A program made the translations under genes and the position numbers. This document shows positions 23,678 through 33,332 of a stretch of DNA of 33,332 bases, piece after piece; the first letter of the stretch is position 1, and the number at the start of each line of letters is the position of its first letter. The stretch covers positions 1 to 33,332 of the forward strand of contig CAIWTU010000011.1 in NCBI GenBank assembly GCA_903915655.1, written 5' to 3'. The notes beneath the pieces were generated by a model. That model was not told the DNA's origin. It worked only from the letters and a program-made list of their open reading frames with translations, and did no database searches. Source of the DNA: an uncultured Geobacter sp. (GTDB taxonomy: Bacteria; Desulfobacterota; Desulfuromonadia; Geobacterales; Geobacteraceae).

Positions 23678-26008
23678 ATGAAGACGGGAGTAGTTGAAGA
23701 TTACCGACTTGTAGAGATCGTACTCGACGCAATTCCGATACCGGTCTTTTACAAAAATAGCAAGGGGTTCTATCTTGGCTGCAATACTGCTTATGAGACT
23801 TTTTTTGGAAAGTCCAGGAACTACCTGTCCGGTAAAAACGTGCATCAAGTTTTCGACAAGAAATTTGCAGAGATCATCCATGAAATGGATGAGAAGCTGA
23901 TACGGGAACCGGGCATTCAGATTTATGAGAGTACGGTTCTTGATGTCAACCGAATAGAGCGCGACATTATTTTTCACAAAGCAACTTTTCTTTATCCGGA
24001 CGGATCAGTGGCAGGTATTGTCGGGGCGGTTCTTGATACTACCGAACTGAAAGCGTCAGGAAATGACCTTCGGCTGGCGATTCATCTCTTTAAGACAATC
24101 ATTGATGCTTCACCCTTGGCCATTATCGCGCTGGATACTGATGTCAACCTTACCCTCTGGAATGATGCCGCGGAGAAGATGTTCGGCTGGAAAAAGGAAG
24201 AGGTGCTCTTTAAGCCATATCCGTTAATTCCCGATGACCGTATTGAAGAGGTGCGAAATAATATAAGGCTCCTGCACAAGGGAGAAGTGCATCGTTCTAC
24301 GGAAACGTGCCGCAAACGAAAAGATGGCTCACTTGTCGATGTGAGTCTTTCCACAGCCGTTATGCCGGGACCGGATGGTCAACTTATGGGCTACATGGCG
24401 ATTATGGCCGACATAGCCGAGCGGAAGCGCGCAGAACTGGACCTCATGGAATCCGAGGCAAATTACCGGACTATTTTCGATATGGTGAATGACGCGGTCT
24501 TTCTCCTCGATTTTGAGACCGGTAATATTCTGGACGTAAACCGTAAGTTGTGTGAGATGTATGGATATAACCGGGCAGAAGCCCTCCTCCTCAGGATAGA
24601 AGATCTCAGTTCCGGTGAAACTCCGTACAGACAGGAAAATGCTTTCAAGCAAATTAGAAAGGCCGGTCATAACAGATCGCATCTTTTCGAATGGGTAGCA
24701 AAAGACAGTGCCGGAAAGCTTTTCTGGGTTGAGGTCAACATGAAGGGGGTGATTATCGGGGGGGGCTACAAGGCCCTTGCAGTTGTGAGGGATATTACGG
24801 AGCGGAAGGAGGCCGTGCAAGCCCTCCGGGAAAGTGAGGAACGTTTCAGACAGATCTTCGAAGAAGACGAAGATGCTGCTCTGATCCTCAATCCTCAAAC
24901 ATTTTCCATAGTCGATGCCAATGCTGCGGCTGTGCGTCTGTATGGTTGTTCGAAAAAAGAGATCAGGAAAAGCAGACTTTCTCAATTTATGATATCGGAA
25001 GAATATGGCAAATTTACTGAAACCTTCGCGATGACGGAGATCGATCCCTCTTCCAGGAGCAGGTTATTCAAGATTGACCGAATTGATATCGTTAGCAAAA
25101 ACAGAAAAAAGATAGCGACATCAGTGCGAGGAAGGATCATCAAATCCCAGGGCAATAATTACATATACTGTACTTTCAGGGACATAACGGAAAAGCTGAG
25201 GATCAAAGAGGAAAGGAAAAGCTTCGAAGATAAGTTGATACAGGCCAATAAGATGACGGCTCTCGGAACCCTGGCATCAGCGATTGCACATGAGATCAAT
25301 AACCCCAACAATTATATCCTTTCCAGCTCCCAATTTATCCGCGAAGCATGGAGAGAGATCGAACAGATCCTTCTGGAGTACGGCAGAGAAAACGGGGAAT
25401 ATAATATCGGGGGACTCACCGATAAAGAGGCCAGGGATGTAATTCCGAAACTTTTGACCAGCCTGGAAGAAGGATCTCTCCGGATTAAAAATATCGTGGG
25501 GAATCTGAAGAGTTTTGCACGGCAGGAAAACCAGCCCGATTACACCATCCTGGATGTAAACATGGCAGTAAAAGCCGCCTTGGGTTTACTTGGAAATCAG
25601 ATACTTAAATACACCGATAATTTCTTCTGCCATCTGGATGAAAGCCTTCCGAAAGTTCAGGGGAGTTTTCAACAGCTCGAACAGGTCATTATCAATTTAA
25701 CCATGAATGCCCTTCAATCATTGCAAAACAAAAATTCCGGTATCTATATCAGTACGTTTAAAGACCAAAATACGCAACAGGTTGTCATAAGGGTTCGCGA
25801 CCAGGGGACGGGAATACCGGGTGAGTTACTGCCGCGAATCATGGAACCGTTTTTCACGACCAAACAGGATACGGGAGGAACAGGTCTCGGCCTTTCCATC
25901 TGTAACTCGATTATAAAAAAACACAGGGGAACAATCGAATGCGAATCCAGTCTTAAACTTGGGACGATTTTTACCGTGAAACTACCGGTTTACGGAGCAA
26001 AATTATGA
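23678..26008 (+). CDS. Sensor histidine kinase with four PAS domains
   Basis: 776 residues from ATG 23678 (GAGGAGAG just upstream). No membrane segment is obvious, so it is probably a soluble sensor. Four PAS domains lie at about 10-120, 133-255, 260-380 and 385-505. The HisKA segment has the phospho-acceptor His538 (SAIAHEINNPNNY). The ATPase domain (about 660-775) has N box NLTMNAL, G1 DQGTGIP, F box FFTTK and G2 GTGLGL. It should autophosphorylate and pass the phosphate to the overlapping regulator. The signal is unknown; PAS domains could bind heme, flavin or small molecules. The stop overlaps the regulator start by 4 bases (ATGA). Confidence 0.93.
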   Translation: MKTGVVEDYRLVEIVLDAIPIPVFYKNSKGFYLGCNTAYETFFGKSRNYLSGKNVHQVFDKKFAEIIHEMDEKLIREPGIQIYESTVLDVNRIERDIIFHKATFLYPDGSVAGIVGAVLDTTELKASGNDLRLAIHLFKTIIDASPLAIIALDTDVNLTLWNDAAEKMFGWKKEEVLFKPYPLIPDDRIEEVRNNIRLLHKGEVHRSTETCRKRKDGSLVDVSLSTAVMPGPDGQLMGYMAIMADIAERKRAELDLMESEANYRTIFDMVNDAVFLLDFETGNILDVNRKLCEMYGYNRAEALLLRIEDLSSGETPYRQENAFKQIRKAGHNRSHLFEWVAKDSAGKLFWVEVNMKGVIIGGGYKALAVVRDITERKEAVQALRESEERFRQIFEEDEDAALILNPQTFSIVDANAAAVRLYGCSKKEIRKSRLSQFMISEEYGKFTETFAMTEIDPSSRSRLFKIDRIDIVSKNRKKIATSVRGRIIKSQGNNYIYCTFRDITEKLRIKEERKSFEDKLIQANKMTALGTLASAIAHEINNPNNYILSSSQFIREAWREIEQILLEYGRENGEYNIGGLTDKEARDVIPKLLTSLEEGSLRIKNIVGNLKSFARQENQPDYTILDVNMAVKAALGLLGNQILKYTDNFFCHLDESLPKVQGSFQQLEQVIINLTMNALQSLQNKNSGIYISTFKDQNTQQVVIRVRDQGTGIPGELLPRIMEPFFTTKQDTGGTGLGLSICNSIIKKHRGTIECESSLKLGTIFTVKLPVYGAKL

Positions 26009-27423
26009 GCGCCTGTTGTGAAAAAATTCTTCTTGTCGATGACGAAGAGAGCATTTTGCTGACTTCGGGCACCTTGCTTCGCAGCGCCGGCATCAGGGAT
26101 CTGCTGACGGTTGACGACAGCAGAAAGGTGCTGCCGTTACTTGCAAGGGAAAAAATCGATATAATTGTCCTGGATCTCTTTATGCCCTATATTACCGGCA
26201 AAGTACTGCTTGCCGAAATTTCAAAGGAATATCCGAACATTCTGATACTGGTCATGACAGCTGCCGATGAGTTGGAAACCGCCGTTGAATGTATGAAGGC
26301 CGGTGCATTCGATTACCTGGTGAAGCCGGTTGAAAGGGCGCGATTCATCTCCAGTGTGAATAAGGCAATCGAAATTTGCAGCCTGAAGAGGCAGATGAAT
26401 GATCTAAGGGAACACCTTCTGCACAAAACAGTGGAACACCCCGCTCTCTTTTCATCGATAGTTACTGCAAGTGAAAAAATGACTACCATCTTTCAGTACG
26501 TGGAAGTCGTGGCCCCTTCGCGTGAACCCGTTCTGGTTACGGGGGAGACCGGAGTGGGGAAGGAATTGATCGCCAGGGCCATACATGAAACAAGCGGAGT
26601 GCAGGGAAGCTTTGTCCCTGTAAATGTTGCGGGCCTTGATGACGCAATCTTTACAGACACCCTTTTCGGCCATAGAAAAGGCGCTTTTACGGGCGCGGAC
26701 AAGCCAAGGGAAGGGATGATTGCCCAAGCTTCGGGCGGCACGCTCTTTCTGGACGAAATCGGGGATCTGAAGGAACTTTCGCAAATCAAGTTGCTGAGAC
26801 TTCTTCAGGAACGTGAATATTATGCAATCGGTTCCGATGTCCCTAAAAAAAATAATGCACGTATTCTTGCCGCGACAAACAGACCCCTGAGGGAAATGGT
26901 CGCCAGGGGAGATTTCCGCAAGGACCTCTATTACAGGTTGTGCACGCACCATGTCGAAATACCCCCCCTGCGTGAACGGAAGGAGGACATCCCGCTCCTG
27001 CTCGACTATTTTCTGGGAAAGGCCTCCGCAGCGCTCAATAAAAAGAAGCCGCTCCTTCCTCCTCAAGCGGTTCTTCTTCTTGCAAATTATTCATTTCCCG
27101 GCAATGTCAGGGAGATTGAAGCGATGGTGCACGACGCCGTTGCCAGGCACAGGTCGGGGGTCCTTTCCCTGGACAGCTTCAGGCGCAGTATGAAAGAGGG
27201 CGAAACGCTCGATCCCCACTTCTCCGCGGACCTGTCACAAGGTACCGAAATGCTGACCGGCATCCTCCCTTCCCTCCCCACCCTCAGGGAAGCAGGGACC
27301 TTTCTGGTTAAAGAAGCTCTGAGGCGCTCCTCAGGAAACCAGGGAATTGCAGCCTCTCTCCTCGGCATTACCCGTACTGCCCTGAACAAGCGATTGAAAA
27401 GGGATTCTGCCCTGCTCGACTGA
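26005..27423 (+). CDS. NtrC-family sigma-54-dependent response regulator
   Basis: 472 residues. The receiver domain (about 6-120) has acidic pair DDE (12-14), phospho-acceptor Asp57 and a conserved Lys (VKP). The AAA+ domain (about 150-385) has Walker A GETGVGKE, the sigma-54 contact loop GAFTGA, Walker B GGTLFLDEIGD and the arginine-finger region PLRERKEDIPLL. A Fis-type helix-turn-helix ends the protein (NQGIAASLLGITRTALNKRLK). It should activate sigma-54 promoters when phosphorylated by the upstream kinase. The alcohol dehydrogenase gene 233 bases downstream has a sigma-54-like promoter, making it the first candidate target. Confidence 0.95.
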   Translation: MSACCEKILLVDDEESILLTSGTLLRSAGIRDLLTVDDSRKVLPLLAREKIDIIVLDLFMPYITGKVLLAEISKEYPNILILVMTAADELETAVECMKAGAFDYLVKPVERARFISSVNKAIEICSLKRQMNDLREHLLHKTVEHPALFSSIVTASEKMTTIFQYVEVVAPSREPVLVTGETGVGKELIARAIHETSGVQGSFVPVNVAGLDDAIFTDTLFGHRKGAFTGADKPREGMIAQASGGTLFLDEIGDLKELSQIKLLRLLQEREYYAIGSDVPKKNNARILAATNRPLREMVARGDFRKDLYYRLCTHHVEIPPLRERKEDIPLLLDYFLGKASAALNKKKPLLPPQAVLLLANYSFPGNVREIEAMVHDAVARHRSGVLSLDSFRRSMKEGETLDPHFSADLSQGTEMLTGILPSLPTLREAGTFLVKEALRRSSGNQGIAASLLGITRTALNKRLKRDSALLD

Positions 27424-31792: not shown

Positions 31793-31950
31793 TTGATGCT
31801 CTTGCAAATTCTCAAAAAAGTTCCCTCCCCCCTGGCGGGGGAGGGCTAGGGTGGGGGGGACATTGCCATGTAAACTCCAAGTTGCAGCTTCACCCACCCC
31901 CTGGCCCCCTCCCGTCAAGGGAGGGGGAATGATTTTTTGCAGCTGCATCA
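31793..31950. repeat. Palindromic element, copy 2 (MITE-like, longer)
   Basis: 158 bases, starts TTGATGCTCTTGCAAATTCT and ends TTTTTTGCAGCTGCATCA, the same ends as copy 1. Two internal C/G hairpins (31822-31845, 31909-31927) and a GGGTGGGG/CCACCCCC pair suggest an internal duplication. Outside, TATATAGC and GCTTATAT extend the inverted ends. Confidence 0.75.
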
Positions 31951-32088
31951 CGCTTATATCAGAGGAGATAGCAGGAATCTCTAGAGCTGCTCCCTGTGTC
32001 CCGATAAAAAAATCTAGCTGCAAAGGCACTGATAGCAAGGATCTATCTCTCTGGATGCGTGCAAAAGCGGCAAAATGGTGATTTTCCC

Positions 32089-32178: not shown

Positions 32179-32289
32179 GCGACAGGTTAAAACGCCCGTA
32201 TTTACGGGGAGCAGTGCCACGGTCTGTCGCTGAGAAGCAAAGCGTTCCTAAATAGAACACAGGTTGAAAAGCCGGTTTTAGTAAAACCG
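32179..32289. repeat. Set of inverted repeats upstream of the sigma-54 promoter
   Basis: GCGACAG/CTGTCGC (32179-32185, 32224-32230) encloses CCCGTA/TACGGG (32195-32200, 32203-32208). A 17-bp palindrome CGGTTTTAGTAAAACCG (32273-32289) ends 22 bases before the -24 element. They could be activator or repressor sites, or RNA structure. Confidence 0.5.
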
Positions 32290-32311
32290 CGTAAACATGG
32301 GTTTTGTTGTC

Positions 32312-32327
32312 TGGCACGCTAATTGCT
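32312..32327 (+). promoter_or_regulatory. Perfect sigma-54 (-24/-12) promoter
   Basis: TGGCACGCTAATTGCT fits TGGCACG-N4-TTGCW at every position. Transcription would start near 32339, giving an untranslated leader of about 330 bases before the porin start codon at 32671. Confidence 0.85.
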
Positions 32328-32377
32328 CGTCTTAAACGAACTTTTGTATTTAACTCTGAACAGGAAGGAGGTGTGTA

Positions 32378-32440
32378 GTGTTTTGGCGCCGGCCTTTGAC
32401 CGGTCAGGATGCTTTTGAAGGTGACTCTTTGGATTCCTGA
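32378..32440 (+). CDS. Possible 20-residue leader peptide
   Basis: GTG 32378 to TGA 32440, preceded by AAGGAGGTG (32365-32373), among the strongest Shine-Dalgarno matches in the window, 26 bases after the predicted sigma-54 start. The product would be MFWRRPLTGQDAFEGDSLDS. No family; it could regulate the porin mRNA. Confidence 0.3.
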   Translation: MFWRRPLTGQDAFEGDSLDS

Positions 32441-32670
32441 CGTCCGCAGCAAGCTTTCTGGAATCTGCCATTTATCTGGCTTTATCCCATTGAGGGGAAA
32501 ACGTGCCATTGCTCCTGATCGGGGCAGGTATCAAAAAAGATGGGGTAAAATTTGACAGTGAGTTTTTGTAGTATTTAGCCGGACTCCAGACAGGCGATCG
32601 GGGGAAAGATGTTCCCCGGACGGTTTGACTGGAGTAACCAACTTGTAGTTACTATCAGAAGGAGGAAAAA

Positions 32671-33332
32671 ATGAAATTAAGACTGAGTAAGATGTTTACT
32701 GGACTGCTAGGTCTGGCCGCTCTCGTAGCGGTAGCAGCAAGCCCGGCACAGGCGGCGTTCGTCGTCGGTGGTGAGAACGGCTGGCAGATGAGCTTTGACG
32801 GTATGATCAACGTGTTCGGTGTTTATGACACGAAGAGCAGCAGAACTGGCGGGAATAACTTTTATAATACCGATCCGGTCACAATGAATCAATCCCCGGC
32901 CGAGCAGTCTTTCCGTATCCGTACCGGTCTCCTGCCGAGCATTTTCGCCTTCAACGTAAAGTCACCGACCATTAACGGCGTAGACTACGCCGCCAGGATT
33001 GGCCTTTATCCCCAGATAGAAAATGCCGGCACCAGATCAGGTCTCGGACCAGGTATGAACAACGGCGGCACCTCGATCGATATCCGTGAAGTATTCTTCA
33101 CCGCTGACGGTTGCTTCGGCCAGGTTCTCGCCGGCCGTGCCCTCAACCTCTACCTCGGTAAGAACATCCTTACCGACATGACCCTGATCGGTCTTGGCGT
33201 GCCGCTGAACCTGACCGGTGAAGGCGTAAGCTTGGGCTTTATCGGCAGGGGCTATCCTTACCCCTCCTTTGGACCACAGTTCCGCTATACCACGCCTGAC
33301 ATGAACGGCTTCAAGGTTGCGGTCAGCATCAA
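32671..33332 (+). CDS. Outer-membrane porin-like protein, 3' end cut by window
   Basis: ATG 32671 with AAGGAGG (32659-32665) at ideal spacing; the frame stays open to the right edge, giving 220 visible residues. A signal peptide covers about 1-28 (LLGLAALVAVAASPAQA, cleaved before AFVVGG). The mature part alternates like beta strands: WQMSFDGMINVFGVYD, SFRIRTGLLPSIFAFNVKS, AARIGLYPQIE, FFTADGCFGQVLAGRALNLYLG. This is the start of a Gram-negative porin-type barrel for solute entry through the outer membrane. The perfect sigma-54 promoter upstream suggests control by an NtrC-type activator, for example nitrogen or carbon status. Confidence 0.85.
   Translation, partial: MKLRLSKMFTGLLGLAALVAVAASPAQAAFVVGGENGWQMSFDGMINVFGVYDTKSSRTGGNNFYNTDPVTMNQSPAEQSFRIRTGLLPSIFAFNVKSPTINGVDYAARIGLYPQIENAGTRSGLGPGMNNGGTSIDIREVFFTADGCFGQVLAGRALNLYLGKNILTDMTLIGLGVPLNLTGEGVSLGFIGRGYPYPSFGPQFRYTTPDMNGFKVAVSI

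What the first reader, a model, noticed from the sequence alone, without database searches (positions are those of the whole stretch)
32312..32670. Perfect sigma-54 promoter with a long leader and a leader-peptide candidate before a porin gene
TGGCACGCTAATTGCT matches the full consensus, yet the porin ATG is about 330 bases beyond the start. Early in the leader is AAGGAGGTG (32365-32373) followed by a 20-codon frame (32378-32440), while the porin has its own strong ribosome site at 32659. A long leader with an efficient upstream frame suggests post-transcriptional control.
Basis: partly seen in the sequence, partly recalled or inferred. Interest (0 to 1): 0.55.

Follow-up and report, generated by a model that had tools for sequence, protein, structure and literature searches.

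The report
Orphan ribosome-binding site in porin leader
A porin gene of an uncultured Geobacter relative is read from a sigma-54 promoter into a long untranslated leader that keeps a perfect ribosome-docking site with no conserved small gene behind it, which probably protects the messenger RNA rather than making a leader peptide.

Summary
The sigma-54 promoter is real: a strong match (14 or more of 16.2) precedes 31 of 47 porin loci across the order. The leader-peptide reading fails. AAGGAGGTG is kept in 8/8 near porin leaders found by protein search, plus one found by a pattern; a usable ATG/GTG/TTG follows in only 3/9 and never ATG, about chance (40%). The small-frame region is no more conserved (47%) than the rest of the leader (48%). 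In 141 genomes, 18 of 20 non-porin sites with the same strict pattern have ATG 4-8 nt on; a looser pattern gave 14 of 23. A second porin clade keeps its own internal GAAAGGAG (9/9 loci), also without a conserved frame, and 7/30 cytochrome loci carry such sites. Best explanation: an orphan Shine-Dalgarno site near the mRNA 5' end binds 30S subunits without translation and protects the transcript, like STAB-SD of Bacillus cry3A; RNase J, the type of nuclease STAB-SD blocks, is encoded here. That function is inferred, not shown. A UAS-like motif lies exactly 68 bp before the -24 in 8 genomes, and a linked GAF-PAS activator gene is the likely regulator.

The parts
32244..32260 (+). UAS-like motif GTTCCTAAATAGAACAC (GTTC-N7-GAAC), probable enhancer site of a sigma-54 activator
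   Evidence: GTYYCTAAAWWGAACAC found once in each of 8 of 48 family genomes, each time at this leader; exactly 68 bp before TGGCAY in all 8, no match in G001
32293..32305 (+). A/T palindrome-like element just upstream of -24 (AAACATGGGTTTT; other clades AAAAC-N3/4-GTTTT)
   Evidence: aligned upstream regions
32312..32327 (+). sigma-54 promoter TGGCACGCTAATTGCT
   Evidence: conserved upstream of porin orthologues
32334..32345 (+). second palindrome-like element over the inferred start (AAACGAACTTTT; most near relatives AAACGATGTTTTGG)
32365..32373 (+). orphan Shine-Dalgarno site AAGGAGGTG, about +28 to +36 of the mRNA
   Evidence: present in 8/8 near porin leaders found by protein search and in one found by pattern, without a conserved start codon
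32378..32440 (+). 20-codon GTG frame proposed as leader peptide; not conserved
32388..32404 (+). short stem-loop just after the orphan SD (GCCGG...CCGGT)
   Evidence: extra stability at this position across the 9 leaders, (suggestive only; the window alone is not significant there, 13% of shuffles as stable)
32338..32670 (+). long untranslated leader (start inferred from promoter spacing)
32659..32665 (+). porin's own SD AAGGAGG
   Evidence: GAAGGAGGAA is the longest invariant run of the 8-leader alignment
32671..33332 (+). porin gene (Porin_4), cut by the contig end

Best explanation
The porin is transcribed by sigma-54 RNA polymerase, probably driven by the linked GAF-PAS activator bound at the motif 68 bp before the -24. 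The transcript has a roughly 333-nt untranslated leader. Near its 5' end a full-length Shine-Dalgarno sequence (AAGGAGGUG) docks a 30S subunit but has no selected start codon behind it. The docked 30S shields the 5' end from 5'-to-3' decay and keeps the mRNA of an envelope protein long-lived; the porin is translated from its own SD about 290 nt downstream. Shown here: the elements, their conservation, and the lack of a conserved frame. Inferred: 30S binding, stabilisation, and the activator.
For: AAGGAGGTG in 8/8 near porin leaders that came from a protein search; a ninth, G011, came from a pattern that requires AAGGAGG and its contig ends before the gene. In the 8 full leaders, aligned from the palindrome on, the only invariant runs of 9 or more are this site and the porin's own SD; pairwise identity is 1.00 for the SD, 0.47 for the small-frame region, 0.48 for the rest of the leader. 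Start codon at spacing 4-12 in 3/9, GTG in the best position each time; chance level 40%. Control: of 20 non-porin TGGCAYN6TGC...AAGGAGGTG matches in 141 genomes, 18 have ATG at 4-8 nt; porin leaders 0/9 (Fisher p = 5e-6, rows include orthologues). A second porin clade (f4) keeps GAAAGGAG in 9/9 loci fetched for it, 117-136 nt before the ATG, an island in a poorly alignable leader. Orphan SD 7-mers in 7/30 related cytochrome loci against 2/89 other genes with long upstream regions, after moving one misclassified porin. RNase J in G000: 628 bits, cut-off 400. Precedent: passages of PMC4113751 and PMC3997798.
Against: No RNA or decay data. STAB-SD was worked out in Bacillus; [quoted passage not shown] coli. 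A looser sigma-54 plus AAGGAGG pattern gave ATG at 4-12 in only 14 of 23 non-porin loci (against 0/9, p = 0.002), so SDs without a start are not rare at that looseness; some of those nine may lie inside coding DNA, untested. Porin loci of g13 and f2 and most of f3 have no internal SD, nor has the second porin copy C26, so it is not needed for porin expression in general. 3/9 near leaders and 4/9 f4 leaders do have a possible start. The SD adjoins a conserved DNA-like element, and the GGA core also fits CsrA. The 16S 3' end was not found in this assembly, so the pairing rests on the universal anti-SD (recalled).
Confidence: 0.5

Rival explanations
1. Leader peptide or short upstream frame: ribosomes translate the 20-codon frame and its translation controls the downstream gene.
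For: Strong SD with GTG at spacing 6 in the window; 2 more near leaders and 4 of 9 f4 leaders also have a possible start.
Against: Start present in 3/9, no ATG, different frames and lengths, background-level identity. The strict pattern elsewhere mostly recovers SDs with ATG (18/20).
Confidence: 0.1
2. CsrA-type binding site: the GGA-rich stretch (ACAGGAAGGAGG) binds a repressor that controls stability or translation.
For: ACAGGA plus a further GGA near a hairpin; some f4 leaders have ACAGGAT. The CsrA consensus is recalled, not from a call; a csrA gene was not sought.
Against: The ACAGGA part varies in 3/9 near leaders (G021, G016, G001) while AAGGAGGTG does not; the conserved 9-mer is the full anti-SD complement, more than a GGA core needs.
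Confidence: 0.15
3. The block is promoter-proximal DNA: one or more regulators bind the palindromes and the purine stretch around the sigma-54 start.
For: The element over the inferred start has identity 0.90, and palindromes of the same type lie upstream of -24 in several clades.
Against: The spacer between palindrome and SD is less conserved (0.64); the f4 clade has its SD far from the promoter; the conserved 9-mer equals a full SD.
Confidence: 0.15
4. Structured regulatory RNA (riboswitch-like leader) of which the SD is one part.
For: Long leader; fold slightly more stable than shuffles (z -1.9, 4 of 100 shuffles as good); hairpin signal after the SD.
Against: No Rfam match; mid-leader identity about 0.48 without long invariant blocks; the eight 117-nt 5' folds range from z -1.8 to 1.6.
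Confidence: 0.1

Closest known systems
STAB-SD of Bacillus thuringiensis cry3A
   Same: A strong SD close to the mRNA 5' end, far upstream of the real ribosome site, without directing translation; RNase J-type nuclease encoded in the host (PMC4113751 passages).
   Different: Here in a Geobacteraceae relative, at a sigma-54 transcript, inferred on the primary 5' end rather than on a shortened transcript, with a possible stem-loop after the SD; stabilisation untested.
[quoted passage not shown]
   Same: Ribosome binding without translation plus a stem-loop near the 5' end (known here only from the title in the reference list of PMC3997798).
   Different: In the window the possible stem-loop follows the SD; no experiment. 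Order of parts in aprE is recalled, not checked.
RpoN regulon of Geobacter sulfurreducens (PMC2725144)
   Same: Sigma-54 control in a related bacterium.
   Different: A term search of its main text for porin, leader, untranslated, transcription start and outer membrane gave no hits; whether that species has this porin was not tested by name.

Membership tests
sigma-54 promoter | TGGCAC-N5-TTGCW with GG-N10-GC spacing, conserved at orthologues | tested here: met
   31 of 47 loci score 14 or more of 16.2, 14 score 12.2-13.7, 2 below 12
sigma-54 promoter | transcription start about 12 nt after -12 and dependence on RpoN | not testable with these tools
   needs 5'-end mapping and an rpoN mutant
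STAB-SD | SD-like sequence in the 5' UTR that does not direct translation | tested here: inconclusive
   conservation says no selected frame; translation itself not measured
STAB-SD | binds the 30S/16S 3' end | not testable with these tools
   needs toeprinting; 16S 3' end not found in the assembly
STAB-SD | stabilises the mRNA | not testable with these tools
   needs half-life measurement
STAB-SD | host has an RNase J-type 5'-3' exonuclease | tested here: met
   TIGR00649, 628 bits, cut-off 400; the same family is over cut-off in 9 of 14 control genomes
leader-peptide attenuator | conserved small frame with its start | tested here: not met
   3/9 with a start, background identity
Rfam riboswitch or leader families | covariance-model match at gathering score | tested here: not met
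   0 matches in the window

The most novel reading that the evidence does not exclude
Geobacterales use orphan, frame-less Shine-Dalgarno sites in long leaders as a recurrent stability element on mRNAs of envelope proteins (this porin in at least two lineages, and several multihaem cytochromes), in part behind sigma-54 promoters: a STAB-SD-like system outside the Firmicutes that arose more than once.
Probability: 0.35. Interest if true: 0.7.

Novelty: new variant of a known kind. Interest (0 to 1): 0.5.

Why it matters
If true, ribosome docking without translation would be a stability device in metal-reducing bacteria as well as Bacillus, linked to RNase J, and would help explain sustained synthesis of envelope proteins. 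It also gives genome annotators a rule: a strong SD in a long leader need not mean a leader peptide.

Tried and rejected
Leader peptide: rejected on conservation. Known RNA family: none. Whole-leader fold: only slightly better than shuffles; eight 117-nt 5' folds around shuffle level, so no riboswitch is claimed. Formal covariation count for the hairpin after the SD: not done, because MAFFT does not bring the 3' arms into register; the only support is the stability contrast on related sequences. CsrA site: kept as a rival. A closer sigma-70 promoter: none on the + strand at the scan's threshold. The two-component NtrC-type regulator in the window (26005-27423) was considered as activator; the GAF-PAS one downstream is preferred because it stays next to the porin in the relatives. 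Papers, listings only. No paper held both STAB-SD and Geobacter; STAB-SD with proteobacteria gave 3, 2 of them listed, both reviews. PMC12316311, passages on porin, Geobacter, Desulfuromon and outer membrane: nothing on this porin.

Rows and counts: duplicates of the same leader from two collections were dropped, and L049, which is a cytochrome locus. The pattern ends in a not-G base, so some true sites are missing there, for example window, G026 and G031. G011 entered through a pattern with AAGGAGG, so it counts for the start-codon question, not for SD conservation. The ten f4 rows hold nine loci from the protein search and L078, which I added after seeing its SD; a distant f4 match, G086, was not examined. 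With L078 a start follows in 5/10, without it in 4/9; two more have ATG at spacing 2. A first background count (29 of 158) used loci chosen by an SD pattern and was discarded. In one search, 8 of 90 other genes had an internal SD 7-mer and 3 of these no ATG 3-11 nt after it; one of the three (L075) is a porin missed by my text rule, hence 2 of 89. The cytochrome count (7 of 30) takes the match start as gene start and is approximate. Of 16 RRAAGGAGGTG sites in this genome I take only the window's and C154's as leader orphans; several others lie in or at coding frames and the rest were not resolved.

Full report
What is there. The sigma-54 site fits the full consensus, and the inferred start gives a leader of about 333 nt.

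The promoter is conserved. Porin homologues occur in 52 of 97 genomes of the relatives set. Of 47 porin loci with an assigned start taken from that search (L017-L046 without L032, and L186-L203), the best upstream sigma-54 site scores 14 or more of 16.2 in 31, 12.2-13.7 in 14 and below 12 in 2; second-best sites in the same stretches reach at most 12.7, so the middle group, mostly genus g13, is uncertain. Among the 31 the -24 element lies 132 to 470 bp before the ATG. The long leader is thus a clade feature, not a freak of this genome.

Upstream anatomy. GTYYCTAAAWWGAACAC occurs once in each of 8 of 48 family genomes, each time at this leader and exactly 68 bp before TGGCAY in all 8; G001 lacks it. 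Palindrome-like elements AAAAC-N3/4-GTTTT stand just upstream of -24 in many of the f3 and f4 sites printed, in looser form in f2, not in g13, and a second one sits over the inferred start in the near clade. Downstream of the porin lies a gene for a GAF-PAS-sigma54-Fis activator: G000:C165:4108-6051, 72% identical over 648 aa to the one in G026, also in G001; its DhaR-like N-terminal part is in L057 and homologous frames are in the other six named near loci. C165 is joined to C11 by inference: a 98-base identical end and gene order, since the next gene (L204:1160-2077) is 49% identical to the gene after the porin in G001. A HipA-like gene lies between it and the activator in this genome. This activator is the best candidate for the promoter; binding is not shown.

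The small frame. Nine distinct near leaders were compared. Eight came from the protein search and all eight have AAGGAGGTG. The ninth, G011, came from a pattern that requires AAGGAGG, and its contig ends before the gene. A start at spacing 4 to 12 is present in 3/9, GTG in the best position each time, with frames of 20, 12 and 69 codons; the other six have none. Any of ATG, GTG or TTG falls in nine random positions 40% of the time in these loci, so 3/9 is chance. In the 8-leader alignment the SD region is 100% identical, the small-frame region 47%, the remaining leader 48%. The only invariant runs of at least nine are the orphan SD and the porin's own SD.

Controls with the same pattern elsewhere. 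TGGCAYN6TGC followed 15-45 or 46-76 nt later by AAGGAGGTG was sought in 141 genomes of the order. Of 20 non-porin matches, 18 have ATG 4-8 nt after GGAGG, as ribosome sites do. The two others are a secreted-type 133-aa protein in this same genome (C154) and a CXXCH cytochrome in G020, both with their own SD further on. Porin leaders: 0/9 with ATG; Fisher p = 5e-6, but rows include orthologues. A looser pattern, TGGCNYN5TTGC with AAGGAGG 11-41 nt on, in 48 family genomes gives a weaker contrast: of 23 non-porin loci analysed 14 have ATG at 4-12 and 9 do not (p = 0.002 against 0/9). Some of those nine have no gene start within 600 nt and may be coding DNA, which I did not test; one (L113) stands before a gene that one search places in the cytochrome family.

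Second clade and other genes. In family f4 the porin leaders keep GAAAGGAG in 9/9 loci from the protein search, 117-136 nt before the ATG, inside a leader that is otherwise hardly alignable (one row, L192, is out of register there). A start at spacing 4-12 follows in 4/9, once ATG. Among 30 related cytochrome loci, 7 carry an orphan 7-mer upstream. Among other genes with at least 150 nt of upstream space in loci not chosen by an SD pattern, it is 2 of 89 after the correction stated under Tried and rejected. Porin loci of g13 and f2 and most of f3 show no internal SD. The second porin copies also lack it: C26 in this genome has AAGGAGG only at its own start, and the 191 nt held before the porin of L067 have none.

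Structure. The 40 nt after the SD fold better than shuffles in the nine leaders together (mean z -1.46, Stouffer -4.4), unlike windows further down (mean z between -0.94 and 0.33). Single leaders reach p below 0.05 in only 2 of 9. The sequences are related and no formal covariation test was made, so this is suggestive.

Mechanism. A conserved full-length anti-SD complement without a conserved frame is what a ribosome-docking, non-coding site would look like. The precedent is STAB-SD of cry3A, where an SD that does not direct translation binds the 30S subunit and blocks RNase J1 (PMC4113751, passages); [quoted passage not shown] coli (PMC3997798, passages). This genome encodes RNase J. I therefore commit, at 0.5, to a STAB-SD-like role; that the frame is not a conserved leader peptide I hold at about 0.9.

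Natural contrast. The second porin copy in this genome (C26:98925-99769) is 93% identical at the DNA level from window 32507 on and lacks the sigma-54 promoter and the orphan SD. It may be expressed differently.

Noticed in passing
window 31793-31952: Dispersed GC-rich repeat with inverted repeats; about 20 partial copies elsewhere in the genome; terminator-like hairpins on both strands.
   Followed up: partly
G000:C26:98925-99769 (L014, L205): Second porin copy, 93% identical from window 32507 on, without the sigma-54 promoter and orphan SD.
   Followed up: partly
G000:C154:13745-13832 (L149, L174): Another sigma-54-like site followed by an orphan AAAAGGAGGTG and a possible hairpin, 70 nt before a gene for a 133-aa secreted-type protein with its own SD; no Pfam match.
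   Followed up: partly
L211, L212, L217, L219, L220 upstream regions: Cytochrome leaders with orphan GAAAGGAG(G) sites about 100-155 nt before the match start.
   Followed up: partly
L026, L028, L031, L032, L034, L036, L046 after the sigma-54 site: Other porin leaders carry a GCGCGCCGGGCGACG-like stretch instead of the SD, roughly 20-35 nt after the -12 element.
   Followed up: no
L155-L157 and L183-L184: Sigma-54-like sites before small ATG frames (29 and 32 aa) that could be peptide precursors.
   Followed up: no
G000:C81:38536-38546 (L142): GAAAGGAGGTG in the gap between divergent genes, about 400 nt before a 149-aa frame; role not resolved.
   Followed up: no
G000:C165:2155-3429 (L204): HipA-like gene between the gene after the porin and the activator gene, on the opposite strand.
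   Followed up: no
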